Below, one piece after another: positions 19,842 through 31,747 of a stretch of DNA of 64,000 nucleotides. Origin of the DNA: Larkinella soli (GTDB lineage Bacteria; Bacteroidota; Bacteroidia; Cytophagales; Spirosomataceae); NCBI RefSeq assembly GCF_003703975.1, contig NZ_QTJY01000022.1, positions 19,853-83,852 of the forward strand, read 5' to 3'. The notes beneath the pieces were generated by a model that was not told where the DNA came from, did no database searches, and saw nothing but the letters and a program-made list of their open reading frames with translations. Each line of letters begins with the position of its first letter. The stretch's first letter is position 1. A program made the translations under genes and the position numbers.

Positions 19842-22283
19842 TTATTCGCTCTTCAGTACCTTCGCCGGATTGCTCCGGGCCGCTTTCACGGTCTGCGATC
19901 CGATCAGGATGAACGCGATCAGCAATACCGCCCCCAGGCCGATGAACAACTCGGCAACCTGCACGGGGGTGTGATACGGAAAGTGGGTAAGCACTACGTT
20001 TTCGAAGAAAAGGTACGTTACGGGCAGAGCGATCAGGGCCGATAATGACAACTGAACGAGAAAACCGCGGCTCAGTAAGAAGACAAGGCTGCCCGGTCCG
20101 GCGCCCATCACTTTGCGGATGCTGATCTCCTTCAGCCTGGTTTCGGTAGTGAACGCCACCATGCCGAACAATCCCATCGAAGCGATGGAAATGGCGAGGA
20201 AAGAGAGGAAGCCGATGATCTTGATCATGGCCGAAAATTCGCTGTAGGCCTCTTCGATGGCCTCGTCGTAGAACTGAGCCTCGAACGGATGAACCCGATC
20301 GATTTCCTTCCATGCCGACTCGATCCTGGCCAGGGTCGCCGGCATATCGGTACTGCGTATTTTGGCATTGATCGTGGCCCTGTTCTCCGGGGTCCAGGAC
20401 AGGAAGGCTACCGGCCCGATGAGGTTGTCGACCTTGCCGTAATGAAAATCCCTGATGACGCCGACAATGGTCATCTTCCGCGGACTGATGTTGAAACTGC
20501 TGAAGGTGATCACCTCCCCGATGGCTTTTTCGGGATCGTTGCCCGCAATATTGAACCGTTTCAGGACCTGCTGGTTCACGATCACTTCCGTGGCCGCGTC
20601 GGCGGTGGTGGGTCGTGCCTTAAAATTTCCTCCGGCAATGAGCTTGTATTCATGTAACGGCAGATAGTTCTCGTCGACGTGGTTGGTCAGGACCAGCACC
20701 GAATCCCGCGAGTCCCGGTATTTCATGAAACCGCCCCAGGCGTTGCCGACGCTGGTGATGATGTGCGACCGGGACAGGGCGCTTACTTCCGGCATTTCGC
20801 TCAGTTTTTTGAGTAGCACATCGGGTTTATTCCCCTGCATATCGATGTTCAGGATGTTTTCCGTGTTGAATCCCAGATCGAAAGCCAGGATGTTCTTATA
20901 CTGCACATAGCCGATGGCGGTGGTGGTGATGAAGATCAGGGTGAGCGTATACTGAACCACCACCAGGGCGCGCCGGAGGGTTACGTGTTTAAATACCTTC
21001 ACCGTCGACACATTTTTGAGGGCATTGATCGCGCTGACTTTCGAAAAGAAGACGGCGGGCATGAAACCGGCCATCACCCCGACGGTGATCGAAAAGAGGA
21101 TGAAGGCCGCGACCATGGCCGGAGTGAGTTCGAGCTTCACCGTGCGCTGCATCTCCGGAGCCAGGCTGATCAGCAGCGGCCGCAATCCGAGAAACAGGAA
21201 GTAGGACAGAAGCAGGGCCGCCAGGGAGATCATGATGGCCTCCGCCAGAAACTGCTGCCGGATCTGGCCCTTACCGGCGCCGATCGCTTTGCGAAGACCC
21301 ACTTCCTTGAAACGGCGCATGGCCCGCGCAATCGACAGGTTGGTATAGTTGAAACACGCCGACAGGATCACGATGAGGGCAAGCCCGCCGAGGATCCAAA
21401 GCACCACCGGGGGCATGTGAGGGCCGATGGAGCCAGGCCCCCCCTCGGAGGCCCGCAGACTCTCCCCGACGACGATCTCGTATAAAGGAAGGAGTTCGAG
21501 CCGGATCCTGGTGGGTTCGCCGGCGAGATTTTCCTGCTTCGCGATGGCGTCGAGCTGCGACTGAATGGAGGCCCGATCGGCATTTTCCGGCAGCCGGACG
21601 TACACGAAGTTCGACGACATGTTTGTCCATTTCTCAAAGCTGCCGTCGTTTCGGTGGAGCTGACCGGCCGTCGACAGCGATACCAGCGCTTCGAAACTGA
21701 GGTGCGAAAAGAAGGGAACGTCCTTCATGACACCGGTCACCTGGTAGGGAAGTGAATTGAAATGGATGGCCTTCCCCAGCGCCGACCGGCCGCCGAACAG
21801 CTTTTTCGCGGCCGTCTCCGTCAGAACGACCGAATAAGGTTCTTTCAGGGCCGTTTCGGGATTACCCTCCAGCAAGGGAAACGTAAAGATCCGGAATAGC
21901 GACGGGTCCGCCCAGAAGCCCCTGATGGGCAGAACCTGGTCGCCCACCTTGGCGTCCTGCGAAAAATCGTTGCGCAGAATGGCCACTTCTTCGATGCCCG
22001 GTACTTTCTCCCGGATCAGCTTTCCGGCCTTGATGGAGGTGGTGGCATACTTGCCCCCGGATCGCGACCCGCCTTGCTCGCCTTCGGCAGTCACGACGCT
22101 GGTAATGCGATAAATTCTCTCCCCATCCTTATGAAACCGGTCGTACGAACGCAGGTCGAGGACGAACGCGATCAGAAGTAACCCGACGGACATACTGATG
22201 GCCAGGCCGACGATATTGATGAAGGAGAACAGCTTGTTGCGCATTAAGTTGCGTCTCGAAGTTTTGATGTAACTTCCGATCAT
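19842..22283 (-). CDS. ABC transporter permease, MacB/FtsX type
   Basis: 813 aa from the ATG at 22283. An open frame extends to 22481, but that start lies inside the -24/-12-like promoter, and the family normally begins near MIGSYIKTSRRNLMRNK. The architecture is the long Bacteroidota form: helix 1 (LFSFINIVGLAISMSVGLLLIAFVL), a periplasmic MacB core domain, three helices around an FtsX domain (VVLWILGGLALIVILSACFNYTNL), then a second periplasmic domain and a second FtsX domain (about 690-810). It would need a separate ATPase; none is adjacent. Proposed roles are export or mechanotransmission at the inner membrane. Confidence 0.9.
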   Translation of the reverse strand: MIGSYIKTSRRNLMRNKLFSFINIVGLAISMSVGLLLIAFVLDLRSYDRFHKDGERIYRITSVVTAEGEQGGSRSGGKYATTSIKAGKLIREKVPGIEEVAILRNDFSQDAKVGDQVLPIRGFWADPSLFRIFTFPLLEGNPETALKEPYSVVLTETAAKKLFGGRSALGKAIHFNSLPYQVTGVMKDVPFFSHLSFEALVSLSTAGQLHRNDGSFEKWTNMSSNFVYVRLPENADRASIQSQLDAIAKQENLAGEPTRIRLELLPLYEIVVGESLRASEGGPGSIGPHMPPVVLWILGGLALIVILSACFNYTNLSIARAMRRFKEVGLRKAIGAGKGQIRQQFLAEAIMISLAALLLSYFLFLGLRPLLISLAPEMQRTVKLELTPAMVAAFILFSITVGVMAGFMPAVFFSKVSAINALKNVSTVKVFKHVTLRRALVVVQYTLTLIFITTTAIGYVQYKNILAFDLGFNTENILNIDMQGNKPDVLLKKLSEMPEVSALSRSHIITSVGNAWGGFMKYRDSRDSVLVLTNHVDENYLPLHEYKLIAGGNFKARPTTADAATEVIVNQQVLKRFNIAGNDPEKAIGEVITFSSFNISPRKMTIVGVIRDFHYGKVDNLIGPVAFLSWTPENRATINAKIRSTDMPATLARIESAWKEIDRVHPFEAQFYDEAIEEAYSEFSAMIKIIGFLSFLAISIASMGLFGMVAFTTETRLKEISIRKVMGAGPGSLVFLLSRGFLVQLSLSALIALPVTYLFFENVVLTHFPYHTPVQVAELFIGLGAVLLIAFILIGSQTVKAARSNPAKVLKSE

Positions 22284-22459: not shown

Positions 22460-22474
22460 TCAAATCTGGTGCCA
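22460..22474 (-). promoter_or_regulatory. Putative sigma-54 (-24/-12) promoter, permease 1
   Basis: On the minus strand the sequence is TGGCACCAGATTTGA. The -24 part (TGGCAC) matches the sigma-54 consensus and the spacing to TTG is exact; the final base is A where C is expected. It lies 52 bp downstream of the paired palindromes and about 180 bp upstream of the permease ATG. Confidence 0.55.
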
Positions 22475-22525
22475 GCGGCAAAAACGGTCTTTCAGGGGCC
22501 CTGACCCATCATCTTCCGGGATACA

Positions 22526-22565
22526 CTGTCCAGAAGCGGACAAGTCCCTGTCCACGATTGGACAG
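22526..22565 (-). promoter_or_regulatory. Tandem TGTCC-N6-GGACA palindromes (activator site), permease 1
   Basis: Two palindromes: TGTCC-AGAAGC-GGACA at 22527-22542 and TGTCC-ACGATT-GGACA at 22549-22564. Their centres are 22 bp apart, about two helical turns. The arrangement, including spacer length and centre distance, is repeated upstream of the other permease at 25532-25569. The position upstream of a -24/-12 element is that of an enhancer for an NtrC-type activator. Confidence 0.75.
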
Positions 22566-22622
22566 GGAAATGAGCGCCAATGGGTATCTCCAAATCCGAT
22601 AAATACCCCAAAGGGATGGTTT

Positions 22623-25271
22623 TTACTCCGACCGCAGGCTATTCACCGGGTTGATGAGGGCGGCCCGGACGGCCTGAATGCTGACGGTCAGCAACGTAAG
22701 AAGCAGCGCACCGACCCCGGTTACGGCAAACACCCACCACGATAGATCGGTGCGGTATTCATACTGCCGGAGCCAGTTGCCGAGAAAATAATAGGCAATC
22801 GGGACGGCAAGGAAAAAAGCGATCAGCACCAGCACCACGAAGTCTTTCGATAACAGCCGCCATACGTTCAGAACCGACGCGCCGAAGACCTTGCGAATGC
22901 CGATCTCTCTGGTGCGCTGCTCGGCCACGAACGACGACAGCCCAAAAAGCCCTAAGCAGCTGATGAAAATAGCCAGCATCGCAAACCCCGAAGCGAGGGT
23001 GCCGATCCGTTCTTCTGCCGCAAACTTGAGGGCGTATTCCTGATCCGCAAACGTATATTCAAACGGCGAGGCCGGATTGCGTTTTTTAAAAATAGCTTCC
23101 AGGCTCCTGAGGGCGGTGTGGACGCCTGCTTTGGGATGGAGCCTGATATGAATGACGTTCAGACCGCGTTCCTTCGTGTTTATCATGAATACGGTCGGTA
23201 CTACCGGCTCAAACGGTGATCTCATCACCATATCCTTCACGACCCCGATCAGTTTCCAGCTCTTATCATGCCACCGGATCGTTTCACCAACCGGCTTTTT
23301 CAGACCCGTCAGCTTTACGGCGGCTTCATTCAGCAGAAACGCCAGCGAGTCACCGGCATACTGCCTTGAAAAGTCACGGCCTTCCTTTATTTTCCAGCCA
23401 ACCACCTTGCCAAAATCCGGGGTAACGGAGATGGTTCCGAACGAGGCCGGCCGGTTGGGGTCTTTCCCCCGCCACTCCAGATTATTGGCCGATGACCAGA
23501 TGCTGGTGATCGGGCTGGAGGATTCAGCCATATCCGCGACGACTCCGCTGGCCAGTAGTTCCTGGCGGAGTTCCTCGTAGCGGCCCTGAATTTCGGGGGT
23601 ATTCATCGTGATGTTGATCAGCCCGTCCCGGCTGTAGCCCACCGGGCGGTTACGGGCAAACTGAATCTGGCGGAACACGACGATCGTTCCGATAATGAGG
23701 GTAACCGATACACTGAACTGGACCACCACCAGAACCTTGCGGGGCACGGTGGCCAGACGACCCGACCTGAATGTTCCTTTCAATACCCGGATGGCCTGGA
23801 ATGAGGAAAGATAGAAGGCCGGGTAACTACCGGCCACGAAGCCGGTAACGGCCATAAAACCGAGGCAGAGGAGCCAGAACACGGGATTCGACCACGGCAT
23901 GACCAGCCGTTTGTCGGCGATTTCATTGAACAAGGGCAGCATCAGCCAGACCAGCCCTGTACAAAAACCGAAAGCGGCCGTCACGACCAGGAAGGATTCG
24001 CTCAGGAACTGGCCGGCGAGCTGGCTCCGGACCGAACCCAATGCCTTGCGAATCCCCACTTCCTTTGCCCGCTTTTCGGAGCGGGCCGTGCTCAGGTTCA
24101 TGAAATTGATGCAGGCCAGCAACAAGACAAACGCGCCGATCATCCCGAAAAGCCAGACAAACTGGATGCGGCCCCCGGAATTGGTCCCATTCTTAAACTC
24201 GTTGTACAGATGCCATTCCGGCATTGGGTACAGAAAAAGCGACGACCGGGTCTTGTCCTGAATATGCTGATGGAGAACGTTCCTGATTTTGCGGGAAACG
24301 TCGGCGGCCTGGCTGCGCGGGCTGAGCAGCGTATAAATTTCAAAGGAACTGCTGCGCCAGTCATCCAGGCCCTGACCGGCCTCGAAAAGCAGCCCGATCG
24401 GCGCCAGGAAGGCCGCGTTTTTAAAGGTCGAATTGTGGGGCAAATCCCTGTAAACGCCCGCTACCTGCACCAGGTAGCGATTCCCGATTTTAAGGGCTTT
24501 ATGCAGAGGATCGCCCGTGCCGAAGAGTGCCTTTGCGGTCGTTTCGGAAATCAGGACGGAAGTAGGGTCCTTTAACCCCAGACGGCTTCCCTGAATCATG
24601 TCAAACGTCATCATTTCCGGGAAGTCCGATTCCACGAAGCCGCCCGACCGGGTAAATTTCCGATCCTGAAAAGCAACGATCTGGTCCGTCCAGACGGCGG
24701 CAGCGACGGATTTGAAATCATCCGGATACCGGGTTCTCAGCTCCCGGCTCACGGGCATCGGCAAGGCGGCAAACGTCTGGACGCCCTGCTCCAGCGTTTG
24801 GTTTTCCATGACCTGAGCAATGCGGCCGGAATGCTGGTGAAAGCCGTTGAAGGACAGCTCGTCCCAGATCCACAGACCGATCAGCAGGGCCACTGCCATG
24901 CCGCTCGCCAGACCGGTGATATTGATGATGGAGTAGGTTTTCTGTCGGATCAGATTGCGCCAGGCGATCTTAACGTAGTTGCGAAGCATAGCCATATGGA
25001 AAGAAACGGGTTGAGGATCGTCATGAGTGGGTTTCGTTCGGGGTCGGCTAAAGGGGCGTATCAACCGCAGGACGGCCAGTGCATACCGCCGGCGGGCGGT
25101 CCGCACTCCGACGGTCTTCACCCAGTACGCGTACATTTCCAGCAGATCGCCCTGTAGTTCATCCTCCAGACCGGGCGGACTGAAGCGGTTCAGTAACCGA
25201 TCGGCCCAGCGTGGCGGCTTCCGGGCCGACCTTCGGCGATCCGGCGGGTCTGTACGACGTTCATCGCTCAT
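22623..25271 (-). CDS. ABC transporter permease with N-terminal permease prefix domain
   Basis: 882 aa from the ATG at 25271 (885 aa from the ATG at 25280). I prefer 25271 because its ATGA overlaps the stop of a short upstream ORF. Residues 10-75 form a soluble 'permease prefix' domain (LNRFSPPGLEDELQGDLLEMYAYWVKTVG), known from Bacteroidota permeases. The rest is MacB/FtsX: helix 1 (YSIINITGLASGMAVALLIGLWIW), a periplasmic core domain, an FtsX domain (FVWLFGMIGAFVLLLACINFMNL), a second periplasmic domain and a final FtsX domain. It is a paralogue of the permease at 19842-22283. No ATPase gene is adjacent. The upstream regulatory region matches that of its paralogue. Confidence 0.9.
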   Translation of the reverse strand: MSDERRTDPPDRRRSARKPPRWADRLLNRFSPPGLEDELQGDLLEMYAYWVKTVGVRTARRRYALAVLRLIRPFSRPRTKPTHDDPQPVSFHMAMLRNYVKIAWRNLIRQKTYSIINITGLASGMAVALLIGLWIWDELSFNGFHQHSGRIAQVMENQTLEQGVQTFAALPMPVSRELRTRYPDDFKSVAAAVWTDQIVAFQDRKFTRSGGFVESDFPEMMTFDMIQGSRLGLKDPTSVLISETTAKALFGTGDPLHKALKIGNRYLVQVAGVYRDLPHNSTFKNAAFLAPIGLLFEAGQGLDDWRSSSFEIYTLLSPRSQAADVSRKIRNVLHQHIQDKTRSSLFLYPMPEWHLYNEFKNGTNSGGRIQFVWLFGMIGAFVLLLACINFMNLSTARSEKRAKEVGIRKALGSVRSQLAGQFLSESFLVVTAAFGFCTGLVWLMLPLFNEIADKRLVMPWSNPVFWLLCLGFMAVTGFVAGSYPAFYLSSFQAIRVLKGTFRSGRLATVPRKVLVVVQFSVSVTLIIGTIVVFRQIQFARNRPVGYSRDGLINITMNTPEIQGRYEELRQELLASGVVADMAESSSPITSIWSSANNLEWRGKDPNRPASFGTISVTPDFGKVVGWKIKEGRDFSRQYAGDSLAFLLNEAAVKLTGLKKPVGETIRWHDKSWKLIGVVKDMVMRSPFEPVVPTVFMINTKERGLNVIHIRLHPKAGVHTALRSLEAIFKKRNPASPFEYTFADQEYALKFAAEERIGTLASGFAMLAIFISCLGLFGLSSFVAEQRTREIGIRKVFGASVLNVWRLLSKDFVVLVLIAFFLAVPIAYYFLGNWLRQYEYRTDLSWWVFAVTGVGALLLTLLTVSIQAVRAALINPVNSLRSE

Positions 25272-25378
25272 GCGTCCCATCGCTGTTTTACCCGGGTTGA
25301 AATCAGACGGAAAGCCTGGGGGGCAGCCCCCGTCGGCAGGGCGGCTTTTTCAATCTGGTCTAAAAACGTTTCTTTCAT
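25268..25378 (-). CDS. Short ORF coupled to permease 2
   Basis: 36-aa ORF beginning MKETFLDQIEKAALPTGAAP and ending KQRWDA. Its TGA overlaps the ATG at 25271 of the permease (ATGA). It is the first ORF after the putative -24/-12 promoter, with a leader of about 75 nt. In related genomes a PadR-type regulator often precedes such permeases; this peptide is too short and shows no winged-helix pattern. It may be a coupling or leader peptide, a remnant, or chance. Confidence 0.35.
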   Translation of the reverse strand: MKETFLDQIEKAALPTGAAPQAFRLISTRVKQRWDA

Positions 25379-25453
25379 AGCCACATTCAGAACATCCGGA
25401 CGAAAGTCAGGTGCGCCGGGTACCCGGCTCCTGATTAGTATAGGCTTTGTCGT

Positions 25454-25468
25454 ACAAATAGCCGGCCA
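25454..25468 (-). promoter_or_regulatory. Putative sigma-54 (-24/-12) promoter, permease 2
   Basis: On the minus strand the sequence is TGGCCGGCTATTTGT, with the same TGG-to-TTG spacing as the element at 22460-22474. The match to the consensus is weaker (TGGCCG for TGGCAC, TTGT for TTGC). It lies 63 bp downstream of the palindromes, one helical turn more than in the paralogue. Support comes mostly from the parallel arrangement. Confidence 0.4.
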
Positions 25469-25530
25469 AACTTGTCAGCATAGGCAAGCCGGCGAAAATG
25501 GGGCTTTTTTTGAAATTGGCAGGTGGTAAG

Positions 25531-25570
25531 CTGTCCAAAAACGGACAGGCGGCTGTTCAGTAGTGGACAG
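25531..25570 (-). promoter_or_regulatory. Tandem TGTCC-N6-GGACA palindromes (activator site), permease 2
   Basis: Palindromes TGTCC-AAAAAC-GGACA (25532-25547) and TGTTC-AGTAGT-GGACA (25554-25569), with centres 22 bp apart. One half-site has a single substitution. The flanking C and G of the first permease's sites are also kept. The sequence between and around the sites has diverged, so the match is selective rather than a simple recent duplication. Confidence 0.75.
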
Positions 25571-29098: not shown

Positions 29099-29734
29099 TT
29101 ACCGCCTTCCGAGGTACTTGTTCACGGCCTCCACGCGGGTGTGGACCTGCAATTTTTCGTAAATATTGAAGATGTGTTTCCGCACCGTGGTGGGACTGAC
29201 GAACAGAGCTTCAGCCACCTCCCGGTGGCTGTGGCCTTTAGCCAGCCGGTCCAGGATTTCGCGCTCGCGGGGCGTCAGAGTATGCAGTTCATCCCGGGTC
29301 GAAGGCGTATCGTGAAACGAACTGGCGATCTTGCGGGCGATGCTGCTGCTCATGGGCGAGCCGCCCTCGTGGAGTTCCGTAATGGCTTCGAGGAGCTTGT
29401 GGGGCGGGCTTCTCTTGAGAATGTAGGCATTGGCCCCCGCCTTGAGCGATTCGAAAACGGCTTCGTCCTCGTCGTACATGGTGCACATCATGAACTGGGT
29501 GTTGGGGCAGCGGGATTTAAGCAGCCGAACGCATTCGATGCCGCTCATGCCGGGCAGGTCGATGTCCATCAGGACGACATCGACGCCCTCGAAAGGCAGG
29601 GCTTCCAGAGCCTCCTCGGCCGTTTCGAAGGCGGACCGGCACGAAAAGCCGTCGGCGCCGTCGATCAGGATCGCCAGCGACTGACGGATCGGCTCCTTGT
29701 CTTCCACAATGGCGACGGTAATGGGCGATTTCAT
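29099..29734 (-). CDS. NarL/LuxR-family response regulator
   Basis: 211 aa. Receiver: acidic pair Glu11-Asp12 (VEDKE), phosphoacceptor Asp57 (LMDIDLPGMSG), Lys107 (AYILKRSP). The C-terminal HTH begins near residue 150 with LTPREREILDRLAKGHSHREVAEALFVSPTTVRKHIFNIYEKL, a standard LuxR-type domain. It lies 48 bp downstream of the TPR histidine kinase gene on the same strand; that kinase is the evident partner. Its regulon cannot be read from this window. Confidence 0.9.
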   Translation of the reverse strand: MKSPITVAIVEDKEPIRQSLAILIDGADGFSCRSAFETAEEALEALPFEGVDVVLMDIDLPGMSGIECVRLLKSRCPNTQFMMCTMYDEDEAVFESLKAGANAYILKRSPPHKLLEAITELHEGGSPMSSSIARKIASSFHDTPSTRDELHTLTPREREILDRLAKGHSHREVAEALFVSPTTVRKHIFNIYEKLQVHTRVEAVNKYLGRR

Positions 29735-29782
29735 CCGGCAATATTGCGTTTATTTCGGCAGGAACGCCATACTCCATTTGCA

Positions 29783-31747
29783 TTATTTTCCGGTAACGGC
29801 CACGGCGAACGGATACAGAATTTTGACGCAGGTGCCGGCTTCCGAAGGGATGATTTCACAGCTCCCGCCCGACTCCGCCATCCGGTTTCGCATATTGCCG
29901 AGGCCGTTCCGCTGGCCGGGCTTCCCGCCGGACGCAAAACCCTGTCCGTTGTCGCACACCTCGATCCGGAGCCGGTCGGATTCCGGCTTCATGACCAGCC
30001 GCACCTCGGTGGCCCGGGCGTGCTTGACCACGTTGTTGAGCGCTTCCTTGACGGTCAGGAACACGTTCCGCCGGTCGACGCCCCGCATCCAGACCTCCTG
30101 CGCAGACTCTTCCACCTCCGTCCGCAGACGCAGGCCCGCATCTTCCATGAAGTCGCTGGCGTAGGCGCGGGTGTAGGCGATCAGGCCGTTGAGGCTGTCG
30201 TTTCCGGTGTTGAGCGACCAGATGATCTCGTTCATCGTCGTTACCATGTCCGACGAAATGGAAGAGATTTTTTCGATTTCAGGGGTGATGGCCGGTCCCA
30301 TCCGGGATTTGACCACCTCGCTCAGAAGCCCGATGGCGGTCAGCGAGGCCCCCAGGTCGTCATGCATTTCCTTGGAGATCCGGAGCCGCTCCTTCTGCTG
30401 GCCCTGAAGCTCGGACTGCACCACGGCCAGTTCGCGTTCACGCTCGGCCGCCAGCAGGGCCTGGCCGGCCGCCCGCTGCCGCTGCCGGTAATAGAGATAG
30501 CCGAATGCCGCCATACCGGCAACGGCCGCCGTCAGGATGCCGGCCAGCCAGAGCCACTGCCGCTGCCGGTTGCGTTCGGTTTCCAGCCGGGCGATCTGCC
30601 GCTGCTTTTCGGCCAGATTCTGGCGGGCCTCGGCCTGCTTCAGCCGGACCCGGTAGCCTTCCAGCAGTTCCTTGGTTTCCTGATTGTTGATCGAGTCGTC
30701 GACGGCGATGTATTTGTCGAGCCAGCCCGCGGTGGCCCGGTAGTCGCGCAGGCCCTCCGTGGCCAGGGCGTATTCCCGGTAAATGTTGCGCAGTTCAGCC
30801 CGGCCGACATTGTTTTTGCGGGCAATGGCGTAGGACTGGTCGAGCAGAGACCGTGCCCGGCCGAACTCCTTCATGCGGTTATGGGTCTGGGCCATCGCCA
30901 TCAGCAGGTGGAGTTCATGACGCGGGTTTTCGAGCCGGCGGCTGATGCGGAGGGCTTCCCGCTGGTAGTACAGCGCCGAGTCGTAGCGGGCTTCCTCGCT
31001 GTACTGGTAGGCTATGTTGTTGTAGAGGTTGACGGCAAAATCCAGGTCGTTCTGCGGGTCGATCCACTGTTTGGCCTTCAGATAGTATTGCTGCGACTCG
31101 CGGGACCGGTCCTGCTTGCTGAGGACGTTGGCGATGCTGAAGTAGTCGATGGCGACGGACCGCCGGTCGTTCGGGTCGGTCAGGTCGAAGGCGAGGGCTT
31201 TGCGGTAATGCGCCACGGCCTGTTCATACATTTCCTGCTGTTCGTAGATGTACCCCAGGTTCTGGTTGATGACGGCGACGTTTTTCAGTTTTCCGCTCAG
31301 CCGCATGAAGTGGGCGGCCTGCTGGTAATACGGCACGGCTTCGACCAGCCGTCCGGAATACAGGGCGGTGTTGGCAAGGGCGAAGTAACTCAGACCCAGG
31401 TGGCGTTTCGAGGTATCCTGTCGGGCCAGCGTCAGGGCTTCCCGGGCGATCTTTCCGGCTTCCGTGTGGCGGCCCATGTTGTTGAGCTGATACACCATCA
31501 GCCGGATGCTTTCAAAGTAGCCTTTGGTGAAGCCGGTCTGTTTCGAGCGTTCGTAGGCCCGGCGGTAATAATCGAGGGCGGTGCTCACCTGCCGGGTTTC
31601 TACGGCCTCACCCTTCCGCAGCAGTTCCATGACGAAGCTCGTATCACGGGGCGACGGACGGGATTCGGCCCGCGCCGGGCCGATCACCGTCAGTACCGGA
31701 CCCAGCAGGGCAAAAAGACGGAATAGGGAAAAGACACGACGGAACAT
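29783..31747 (-). CDS. TPR-containing sensor histidine kinase (NarX/DesK-type)
   Basis: 654 aa. Signal-like N-terminus (1-29), then about ten helical TPR-like units (residues 30-360; for example AVAHYRKALAFDLTDPNDRRSVAIDYFSIANVL), a coiled coil, one membrane helix (WLWLAGILTAAVAGMAAFGYLYY, near 395-417), then a HisKA_3 dimerisation domain with His462 in ISKEMHDDLGASLTAIG and a HATPase domain (DNGQGFA, GLGNMRNRMAESGG). The periplasmic TPR domain is the likely sensor. This is a common Bacteroidota type paired with NarL regulators, and the gene at 29099-29734 follows. Confidence 0.9.
   Translation of the reverse strand: MFRRVFSLFRLFALLGPVLTVIGPARAESRPSPRDTSFVMELLRKGEAVETRQVSTALDYYRRAYERSKQTGFTKGYFESIRLMVYQLNNMGRHTEAGKIAREALTLARQDTSKRHLGLSYFALANTALYSGRLVEAVPYYQQAAHFMRLSGKLKNVAVINQNLGYIYEQQEMYEQAVAHYRKALAFDLTDPNDRRSVAIDYFSIANVLSKQDRSRESQQYYLKAKQWIDPQNDLDFAVNLYNNIAYQYSEEARYDSALYYQREALRISRRLENPRHELHLLMAMAQTHNRMKEFGRARSLLDQSYAIARKNNVGRAELRNIYREYALATEGLRDYRATAGWLDKYIAVDDSINNQETKELLEGYRVRLKQAEARQNLAEKQRQIARLETERNRQRQWLWLAGILTAAVAGMAAFGYLYYRQRQRAAGQALLAAERERELAVVQSELQGQQKERLRISKEMHDDLGASLTAIGLLSEVVKSRMGPAITPEIEKISSISSDMVTTMNEIIWSLNTGNDSLNGLIAYTRAYASDFMEDAGLRLRTEVEESAQEVWMRGVDRRNVFLTVKEALNNVVKHARATEVRLVMKPESDRLRIEVCDNGQGFASGGKPGQRNGLGNMRNRMAESGGSCEIIPSEAGTCVKILYPFAVAVTGK

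What the first reader, a model, noticed from the sequence alone, without database searches (positions are those of the whole stretch)
22460..25570. Same paired palindromes and -24/-12-like promoters before two paralogous permease genes
Seen directly: TGTCC-N6-GGACA occurs twice upstream of each permease gene (22527-22564 and 25532-25569), with centres 22 bp apart in both cases. Each pair lies upstream of a TGG-N9-TTG element with sigma-54 spacing (TGGCACCAGATTTGA; TGGCCGGCTATTTGT). The gap from palindromes to the -24 box is 52 bp in one and 63 bp in the other, a difference of about one helical turn. Established: NtrC-type activators bind paired palindromes upstream of sigma-54 promoters. Inferred: both permeases belong to a regulon of one sigma-54 activator, which is not encoded in this window.
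Basis: partly seen in the sequence, partly recalled or inferred. Interest (0 to 1): 0.85.

Follow-up and report, generated by a model that had tools for sequence, protein, structure and literature searches.

The report
One switch for many permease operons
The paired DNA palindromes seen before two membrane-transporter (permease) genes recur in nearly the same layout before at least 25 permease operons of this bacterium, where they are likely the docking sites of one sensor-controlled sigma-54 activator that would switch the whole scattered set on together.

Summary
It is far from chance. Scanning the genome for the double palindrome alone gives 11 promoters, with none for the reversed-pattern control. 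All 11 precede MacB/FtsX permease genes or PadR-permease operons, and all 11 carry TGG-N8-TTG (shuffles average 0.39 of 11). Further scans bring this to 25 permease promoters with both elements, plus three paralogous small secreted-type proteins. The genome has one rpoN. The likely activator is an NtrC-type response regulator (P0001) on another contig, beside its histidine kinase, with the same palindromes between it and an HlyD-ABC-permease operon. Its orthologs and the motif are both present or both absent in 37 of 39 genomes. Relaxed sites are about 28-fold denser just upstream of such regulators in 80 named loci. A paralogous regulator goes with a palindrome differing by one base (GTGC for GTCC) and with another recognition-helix residue. 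It is a new, unusually large regulon of a known kind; a sigma-54 link to FtsX permeases as a family is already in print (PMC12316311).

The parts
22527..22542 (.). palindrome TGTCC-N6-GGACA, promoter-proximal, permease 1
   Evidence: exact match
22549..22564 (.). palindrome TGTCC-N6-GGACA, distal, permease 1
   Evidence: exact match, centre 22 bp away
22461..22474 (-). predicted sigma-54 box TGGCACCAGATTTG, permease 1
   Evidence: TGG-N8-TTG 52 bp from the palindromes; shared with 20 of 20 aligned promoters
19842..22283 (-). permease 1 (813 aa, MacB core and FtsX domains, two stretches each)
   Evidence: Pfam
25532..25547 (.). palindrome TGTCC-N6-GGACA, promoter-proximal, permease 2
   Evidence: exact match
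25554..25569 (.). palindrome, distal, permease 2; one mismatch (TGTTC)
25455..25468 (-). predicted sigma-54 box TGGCCGGCTATTTG, permease 2
   Evidence: TGG-N8-TTG 63 bp from the palindromes
25281..25454 (-). leader of permease 2 with a likely remnant of the start of a PadR gene
   Evidence: aligns to the leader and first codons of the C6 PadR gene, score 87.8 against a maximum of 50.8 in 200 shuffles; part of the score is the shared leader
22623..25280 (-). permease 2 (885 aa, permease prefix domain 2, MacB core and FtsX domains, two stretches each)

Best explanation
The paired palindromes are likely the enhancer of one NtrC-type response regulator (P0001, encoded on another contig beside its histidine kinase), which would drive sigma-54 RNA polymerase at a TGG-N8-TTG box 51-65 bp downstream and so switch on a regulon of at least 25 permease promoters, both window promoters included. 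Shown directly by sequence: the palindrome pair, the fixed box spacing, two distance classes about one helical turn apart (51-55 bp in 10 and 62-65 bp in 10 of the 20 aligned promoters), the placement before permease operons, and the same palindromes between P0001 and an HlyD-ABC ATPase-permease operon. Inferred: P0001 is phosphorylated by kinase P0008, binds the two palindromes as dimers on one face of the helix, contacts the polymerase by DNA looping and uses ATP to open the promoter. Inferred more weakly: the signal is envelope stress or a membrane-active compound, because the kinase has, by eye, two membrane spans with a very short outer loop, like sensors that work with ABC exporters (recalled). 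Many targets are PadR-permease operons, so the PadR protein would add local control. The regulon likely grew by copying the promoter of a self-controlled exporter operon.
For: Double palindrome: 11 promoters, reversed control 0; 11 of 11 before permease genes (7) or PadR-permease operons (4); TGG-N8-TTG in 11 of 11, shuffle mean 0.39, maximum 4. Nine more by palindrome plus box, control 0, all nine before permease operons. Five more with box before permease operons among 15 model hits read. Spacer identity averages 50% over 43 columns while TGG and TTG are invariant in 20 of 20. One rpoN. P0001 has receiver, sigma-54 activator and Fis-type domains and is followed by a kinase gene. Ortholog and motif agree in 37 of 39 genomes. 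Sites 0.736 per kb within 700 bp upstream of P0001-like genes against 0.026 elsewhere. 15 of 25 ortholog loci in relatives have the relaxed site upstream, 9 of 9 in the genus. P0002-type loci carry GTGC palindromes instead.
Against: No transcript start, binding or mutant data. The C that usually follows TTG is missing in 24 of 29 promoters. 51 of 80 P0001-like named loci have no relaxed site within 700 bp upstream, some because little upstream DNA is held. G318 has an ortholog without a motif match and G315 a match without an ortholog. In some relatives the motif match may be the site beside the regulator itself, so the co-occurrence is not a pure test of the regulon, and related genomes are not independent. 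Of 15 further model hits read, two have neither box nor a fitting gene.
Confidence: 0.85

Rival explanations
1. The sites are read by another sigma-54 activator of this genome, for instance the paralog P0002, not by P0001.
For: Seven strong activators exist. P0002 is 43% identical to P0001 and adjoins a similar exporter operon. Loci L277 and L288, found with P0002-like genes, hold a TGTCC palindrome.
Against: P0002-type loci carry GTGC-N6-GCAC in 16 of 19. The own genome has only one such palindrome with a box, at P0002's own operon. Genomes G307 and G309 have 14 and 20 motif rows; the listed matches show no P0002-like full-length hit there (list cut at the end). L288's regulator has a P0001-like helix residue and L277 has both palindromes.
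Confidence: 0.06
2. The palindromes are operators of the PadR proteins encoded in many of these operons, as repressor sites.
For: Of the 20 promoters first collected, 10 lead into a PadR gene.
Against: The other 10 have no PadR gene next. The sites lie 51-65 bp upstream of the box, where an activator would sit, and occur beside P0001-like genes across phyla. PadR operators recalled from the literature have other half-sites (not tested).
Confidence: 0.04
3. TTTG belongs to the -7 element of the ordinary Bacteroidota promoter, or the whole motif is only carried along by recent gene duplication.
For: ATTTG occurs in most boxes and the textbook C is usually missing. Many permeases are paralogs, and the leaders of permease 2, C6:88127 and C6:83002 look alike.
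Against: TGG stands exactly 8 bp before TTG in 20 of 20 while the spacer averages 50% identity. Unrelated small-protein genes carry the same layout.
Confidence: 0.03

Closest known systems
NtrC-type two-component sigma-54 regulons (NtrC, AtoC, ZraR)
   Same: Receiver, sigma-54 AAA+ and Fis-type domains, a linked kinase, paired palindromes upstream of a -24/-12-type box.
   Different: Below every cut-off listed (best: 383.4 against 502.6 for TIGR02915; AtoC 353.3 against 714). Targets are dozens of scattered permease operons. The loop reads GAFTDA, a variant listed as compatible with function (PMC4641369, passages).
GlrR/QseF of Enterobacteriaceae
   Same: Consensus site TGTC-N10-GACA (PMC8745638, passages) has the same outer half-sites and spacing.
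   Different: P0001 scores 266.9 against a GlrR cut-off of 763. Known GlrR target glmY is a small RNA, not permeases.
Sigma-54 promoters before COG0577 (FtsX-like) permeases, PMC12316311 (passages)
   Same: Predicts sigma-54 control of this permease family, enriched in Bacteroidia among other classes.
   Different: The passages I saw name no enhancer site, activator, PadR operon or single regulon; PadR does not occur in its main text.
ADOP-type duplicated permeases with PadR partners (TIGR03434, TIGR03433)
   Same: PadR-permease operons and duplicated MacB/FtsX architecture.
   Different: Permease 2 scores 272.3 against a cut-off of 622.3; the C10 PadR 35.9 against 101.8. Permease 2 carries permease prefix domain 2.

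Membership tests
sigma-54 promoter | TGG (-24) and TTG (-12) 8 bp apart | tested here: met
   20 of 20 aligned promoters; selected partly by this box in 9 of them, but 11 of 11 when selected by palindromes alone
sigma-54 promoter | C after TTG (the GC of -12) | tested here: not met
   5 of 29 promoters have C; textbook consensus recalled
sigma-54 promoter | start about 12 bp downstream, rpoN dependence | not testable with these tools
   needs 5'-end mapping and a mutant; rpoN is present
NtrC-type activator | receiver, PF00158, Fis-type HTH | tested here: met
   P0001
NtrC-type activator | GAFTGA loop | tested here: inconclusive
   GAFTDA in P0001 and P0002; listed as a variant that would keep function in PMC4641369
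NtrC-type activator | linked histidine kinase | tested here: met
   P0008 starts 4 bp after P0001
NtrC-type activator | binds the upstream palindromes | not testable with these tools
   only co-occurrence and position
GlrR/QseF | score over the GlrR cut-off | tested here: not met
   266.9 against 763
ADOP permease (TIGR03434) | score over cut-off | tested here: not met
   permease 2: 272.3 against 622.3; permease 1 not scanned with NCBIfam after the failed
permease prefix domain 2 transporter (NF038404) | prefix domain over cut-off | tested here: met
   permease 2: 81.4 bits against 35; permease 1 not scanned

The most novel reading that the evidence does not exclude
A single kinase-activator pair has captured roughly thirty promoters by spread of one enhancer-promoter cassette from its own exporter operon, so that dozens of orphan permeases, including a 90-kb stretch with 28 of them, are expressed together and share the one ATPase and membrane-fusion protein of the founding operon: a switchable library of exporter permeases. 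Two sister circuits are kept apart by one base of the site (GTCC against GTGC), read by one residue of the recognition helix (Q450 of P0001 against F in P0002).
Probability: 0.3. Interest if true: 0.78.

Novelty: new member of a known kind. Interest (0 to 1): 0.6.

Why it matters
This genome holds 64 genes with the MacB core domain by my clustering, and many sit with no recognised ATPase gene beside them and no known job. A shared enhancer turns them into one testable unit: delete one regulator and see whether the whole set responds. The work names the likely regulator, predicts its DNA code down to one base and one residue, and offers a natural series for asking how an enhancer-promoter cassette spreads while keeping to two distances about one helical turn apart.

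Tried and rejected
Single palindromes as evidence: in the window, matches with up to 2 mismatches are not above chance (37 against 29.2 expected), so I relied on pairs and on palindrome plus box.

Exact TGTCC palindromes near P0001-like genes were too strict: 6 of 80 loci within 700 bp upstream. The relaxed form TGTnC-N6-GnACA gave 29 of 80, but I relaxed it after seeing the variants of the own genome. The unbiased ranking put TGTCC only fourth at spacer 6, behind AT-rich palindromes, and found others (ACCAT at spacer 4, CAGGT at spacer 8) in more loci; whole loci, genes included, were ranked there.

Class-wide scan: 23 of 295 genomes, the own one included, reached E 1e-3. At most 12 candidates per genome were scored with strict filters, so this is a lower bound. 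The best hits of G267, G127 and G032 had no recognised neighbour.

Of 15 further model hits read in the own genome, six do not fit cleanly: C30:1620 (box present, PadR gene, no intact permease), C6:83002 (decayed permease, box spacing N7), C5:281826 (no TGG-N8-TTG, a 188-aa gene first, permease 1.4 kb on), C11:1913 (no exact TGG, a lumazine-binding-like gene), C20:20312 and C17:114029 (no box, unrelated genes). C2:301802 belongs to a PadR-permease operon on the strand opposite to the reported match; its box was not checked. The model search scored 150 of 1606 candidates, so weaker members may be missing.

A gap of 73 bp printed for C2:71652 is counted from the distal palindrome; from the proximal one it is 52.

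Nine answered paper searches for this regulon gave only PMC12316311 as directly relevant; most subscription papers are not held. Structure prediction, fold search and the large protein search were not used.
Full report
What was claimed and what is there. The window carries two minus-strand genes for large permeases with MacB core and FtsX domains, each in two stretches (19842-22283 and 22623-25280). Upstream of each lies a pair of TGTCC-N6-GGACA palindromes with centres 22 bp apart; one of the four has a mismatch. Downstream of each pair, at 52 and 63 bp, is TGG-N8-TTG.

More than chance. The window lies in G000 (6.92 Mb, 82 contigs). Searching that genome for the 38-bp double palindrome with up to 3 mismatches gave 12 forward rows, which are 11 promoters because one site is a triple, and 0 rows for the reversed control. 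All 11 lie before a permease gene (7) or a PadR-permease operon (4). Under random placement, the chance that a site lies within 1 kb of one of 64 MacB-domain genes is about 0.009. These 11 were chosen without regard to any box, yet 11 of 11 have TGG-N8-TTG downstream; dinucleotide shuffles give a mean of 0.39 and at most 4 of 11, and of the other spacings from 4 to 13 only one single hit (at 11) occurs.

Extending the set. One palindrome plus box gave 16 rows, 0 in control; 9 are new and all 9 precede permease operons, one of them an HlyD-ABC ATPase-permease operon. The 20 promoters align with TGG and TTG invariant, while the spacer averages 50% identity over 43 columns. The gap from the proximal palindrome to TGG is 51-55 bp in 10 and 62-65 bp in 10. 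Palindrome centres are 22 bp apart in the 11; in the other nine, by eye, 21 bp in seven, 20 and 23 in one each.

A model built from the 20 found 12 further places in the genome at E up to 0.21; I read these and three more. Five precede permease operons and have the box, which makes 25 promoters with both elements before permease operons. One more is a PadR-permease operon on the other strand. Three, with box, precede paralogous small proteins of 123-127 aa with a signal-like start. The other six are listed under Tried and rejected.

The small proteins. They match no NCBIfam model and only weakly DUF3244, below its cut-off. A profile of the three finds relatives in 24 of 39 genomes, the own one included. 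Of 30 fetched loci, 20 have a promoter-model match in the stretch, including all 16 strong matches from the own genus and genome G290. They therefore look like members of the regulon by conservation; their function is unknown.

Which regulator. The genome has one rpoN and seven strong sigma-54 activator matches (four more are weak). P0001 (G000:C5:338658-340043) has receiver, AAA+ and Fis-type domains and is followed by kinase P0008. Between P0001 and the divergent HlyD-ABC-permease operon lie two exact palindromes, with TGGCACGTCAATTG 55 bp from them on the operon side.

Four comparisons support P0001. First, in 39 genomes (own one included), presence of an ortholog (51% identity or more; G303 counted on a C-terminal piece of 54%) and presence of a motif match agree in 37: 25 both, 12 neither, G318 and G315 discordant; Fisher p = 4e-8, and 2e-6 without the own genus. 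Relatives are not independent, and some matches may be the site beside the regulator itself, so the p-values overstate. All nine genomes of the genus have 26-45 match rows (rows count both strands of a site). Second, in 80 named loci with P0001-like regulators, mostly Bacteroidota with some Acidobacteriota, Latescibacterota and Proteobacteria by record title, TGTnC-N6-GnACA occurs 40 times in the 700 bp upstream (0.736 per kb, 29 loci) and 17 times elsewhere (0.026 per kb); the reversed and two other control palindromes occur 0 times upstream and 8, 3 and 8 times elsewhere. Third, in the class scan 19 of 22 other genomes with a match have it beside HlyD, ABC, permease or regulator genes, 9 of them beside a P0001-like gene. 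Fourth, 15 of 25 ortholog loci in relatives, 9 of 9 in the genus, have the relaxed site upstream.

A sister circuit. P0002, the closest paralog (43% identity), follows another HlyD-TolC-ABC-permease set. An unbiased ranking of palindromes over 19 such loci puts GTGCG-N4-CGCAC first, in 16 of 19. In 10 of these 16 it lies 52-53 bp before TGG-N8-TTG. The recognition helix reads xRFALYRR in 16 of the 18 fetched loci and in P0002 itself; 16 of these 17 have the GTGC palindrome (L292 does not). The two fetched loci without F lack GTGC palindromes: L286 has S there, L288 has G there and a TGTCC palindrome. L277 has F with both palindromes. P0001-type helices have Q, A, T or G at this place. One base and one residue thus vary together, but this rests on few independent changes.

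How it most likely works. Phosphorylated P0001 would bind the palindrome pair as two dimers on one face of the helix, assemble, and open the polymerase complex held at TGG-N8-TTG. Two distance classes about one turn apart fit looping with a fixed face. The signal is unknown. By eye, the kinase has two membrane spans with a loop of only about eight residues, which recalls sensors paired with ABC exporters (recalled, not tested). A PadR gene downstream of the promoter would let a local repressor trim each operon. Before the second window permease only a likely remnant of such a gene remains.

What does not fit. The C after TTG is missing in 24 of 29 promoters. P0001 and P0002 have GAFTDA where the other five activators have GAFTGA, GSFTGA or GPFADA; GAFTDA is listed among variants that would keep function (PMC4641369, passages). 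Whether the loop variant and the missing C go together is open. 51 of 80 P0001-like named loci show no relaxed site close upstream, some because little upstream DNA is held.

Known or new. Sigma-54 control of FtsX-like permeases as a family was proposed in 2025 from promoter scans (PMC12316311, passages). GlrR/QseF sites have the same outer half-sites (PMC8745638, passages), but P0001 is not a GlrR by score. My nine answered paper searches (listed under Tried and rejected) found no report of this enhancer, this regulator or this regulon, in an open-licence library only. I file it as a new member of a known kind, unusual in size and target.

Noticed in passing
G000:C5:245980-336070 (L025, L098, L099, L100, L276, L032, L038): A 90-kb stretch with 28 MacB-domain permease genes, ending at ABC ATPase, HlyD and the P0001-P0008 pair, with a second ABC ATPase gene at its other end and several of the promoters described here inside it.
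   Followed up: partly
L103:10178-10561, L104:8114-8491, L107:7628-7999 (minus strands): Three paralogous small proteins with a signal-like start, weakly like DUF3244, each behind the same enhancer and box; conserved in the genus.
   Followed up: partly
L036:1613-1628 and relatives L277-L294: Sister circuit of regulator P0002 with GTGC-N6-GCAC palindromes and a different recognition-helix residue.
   Followed up: partly
L038:7659-9044 and L036:7687-9069: Both regulators carry GAFTDA instead of GAFTGA, and 24 of 29 promoters lack C after TTG; possibly related.
   Followed up: partly
G000:C6:83002-83117 (L106): A decayed permease gene whose promoter box has spacing N7, as if promoter and gene decay together.
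   Followed up: no
G000:C8:136298-136357 (L031): Three palindromes in a row at 22-bp steps before one permease, instead of two.
   Followed up: no
window 29099-31747, minus strand: A LuxR-type response regulator with a 654-aa gene just upstream; not of the sigma-54 activator type.
   Followed up: no
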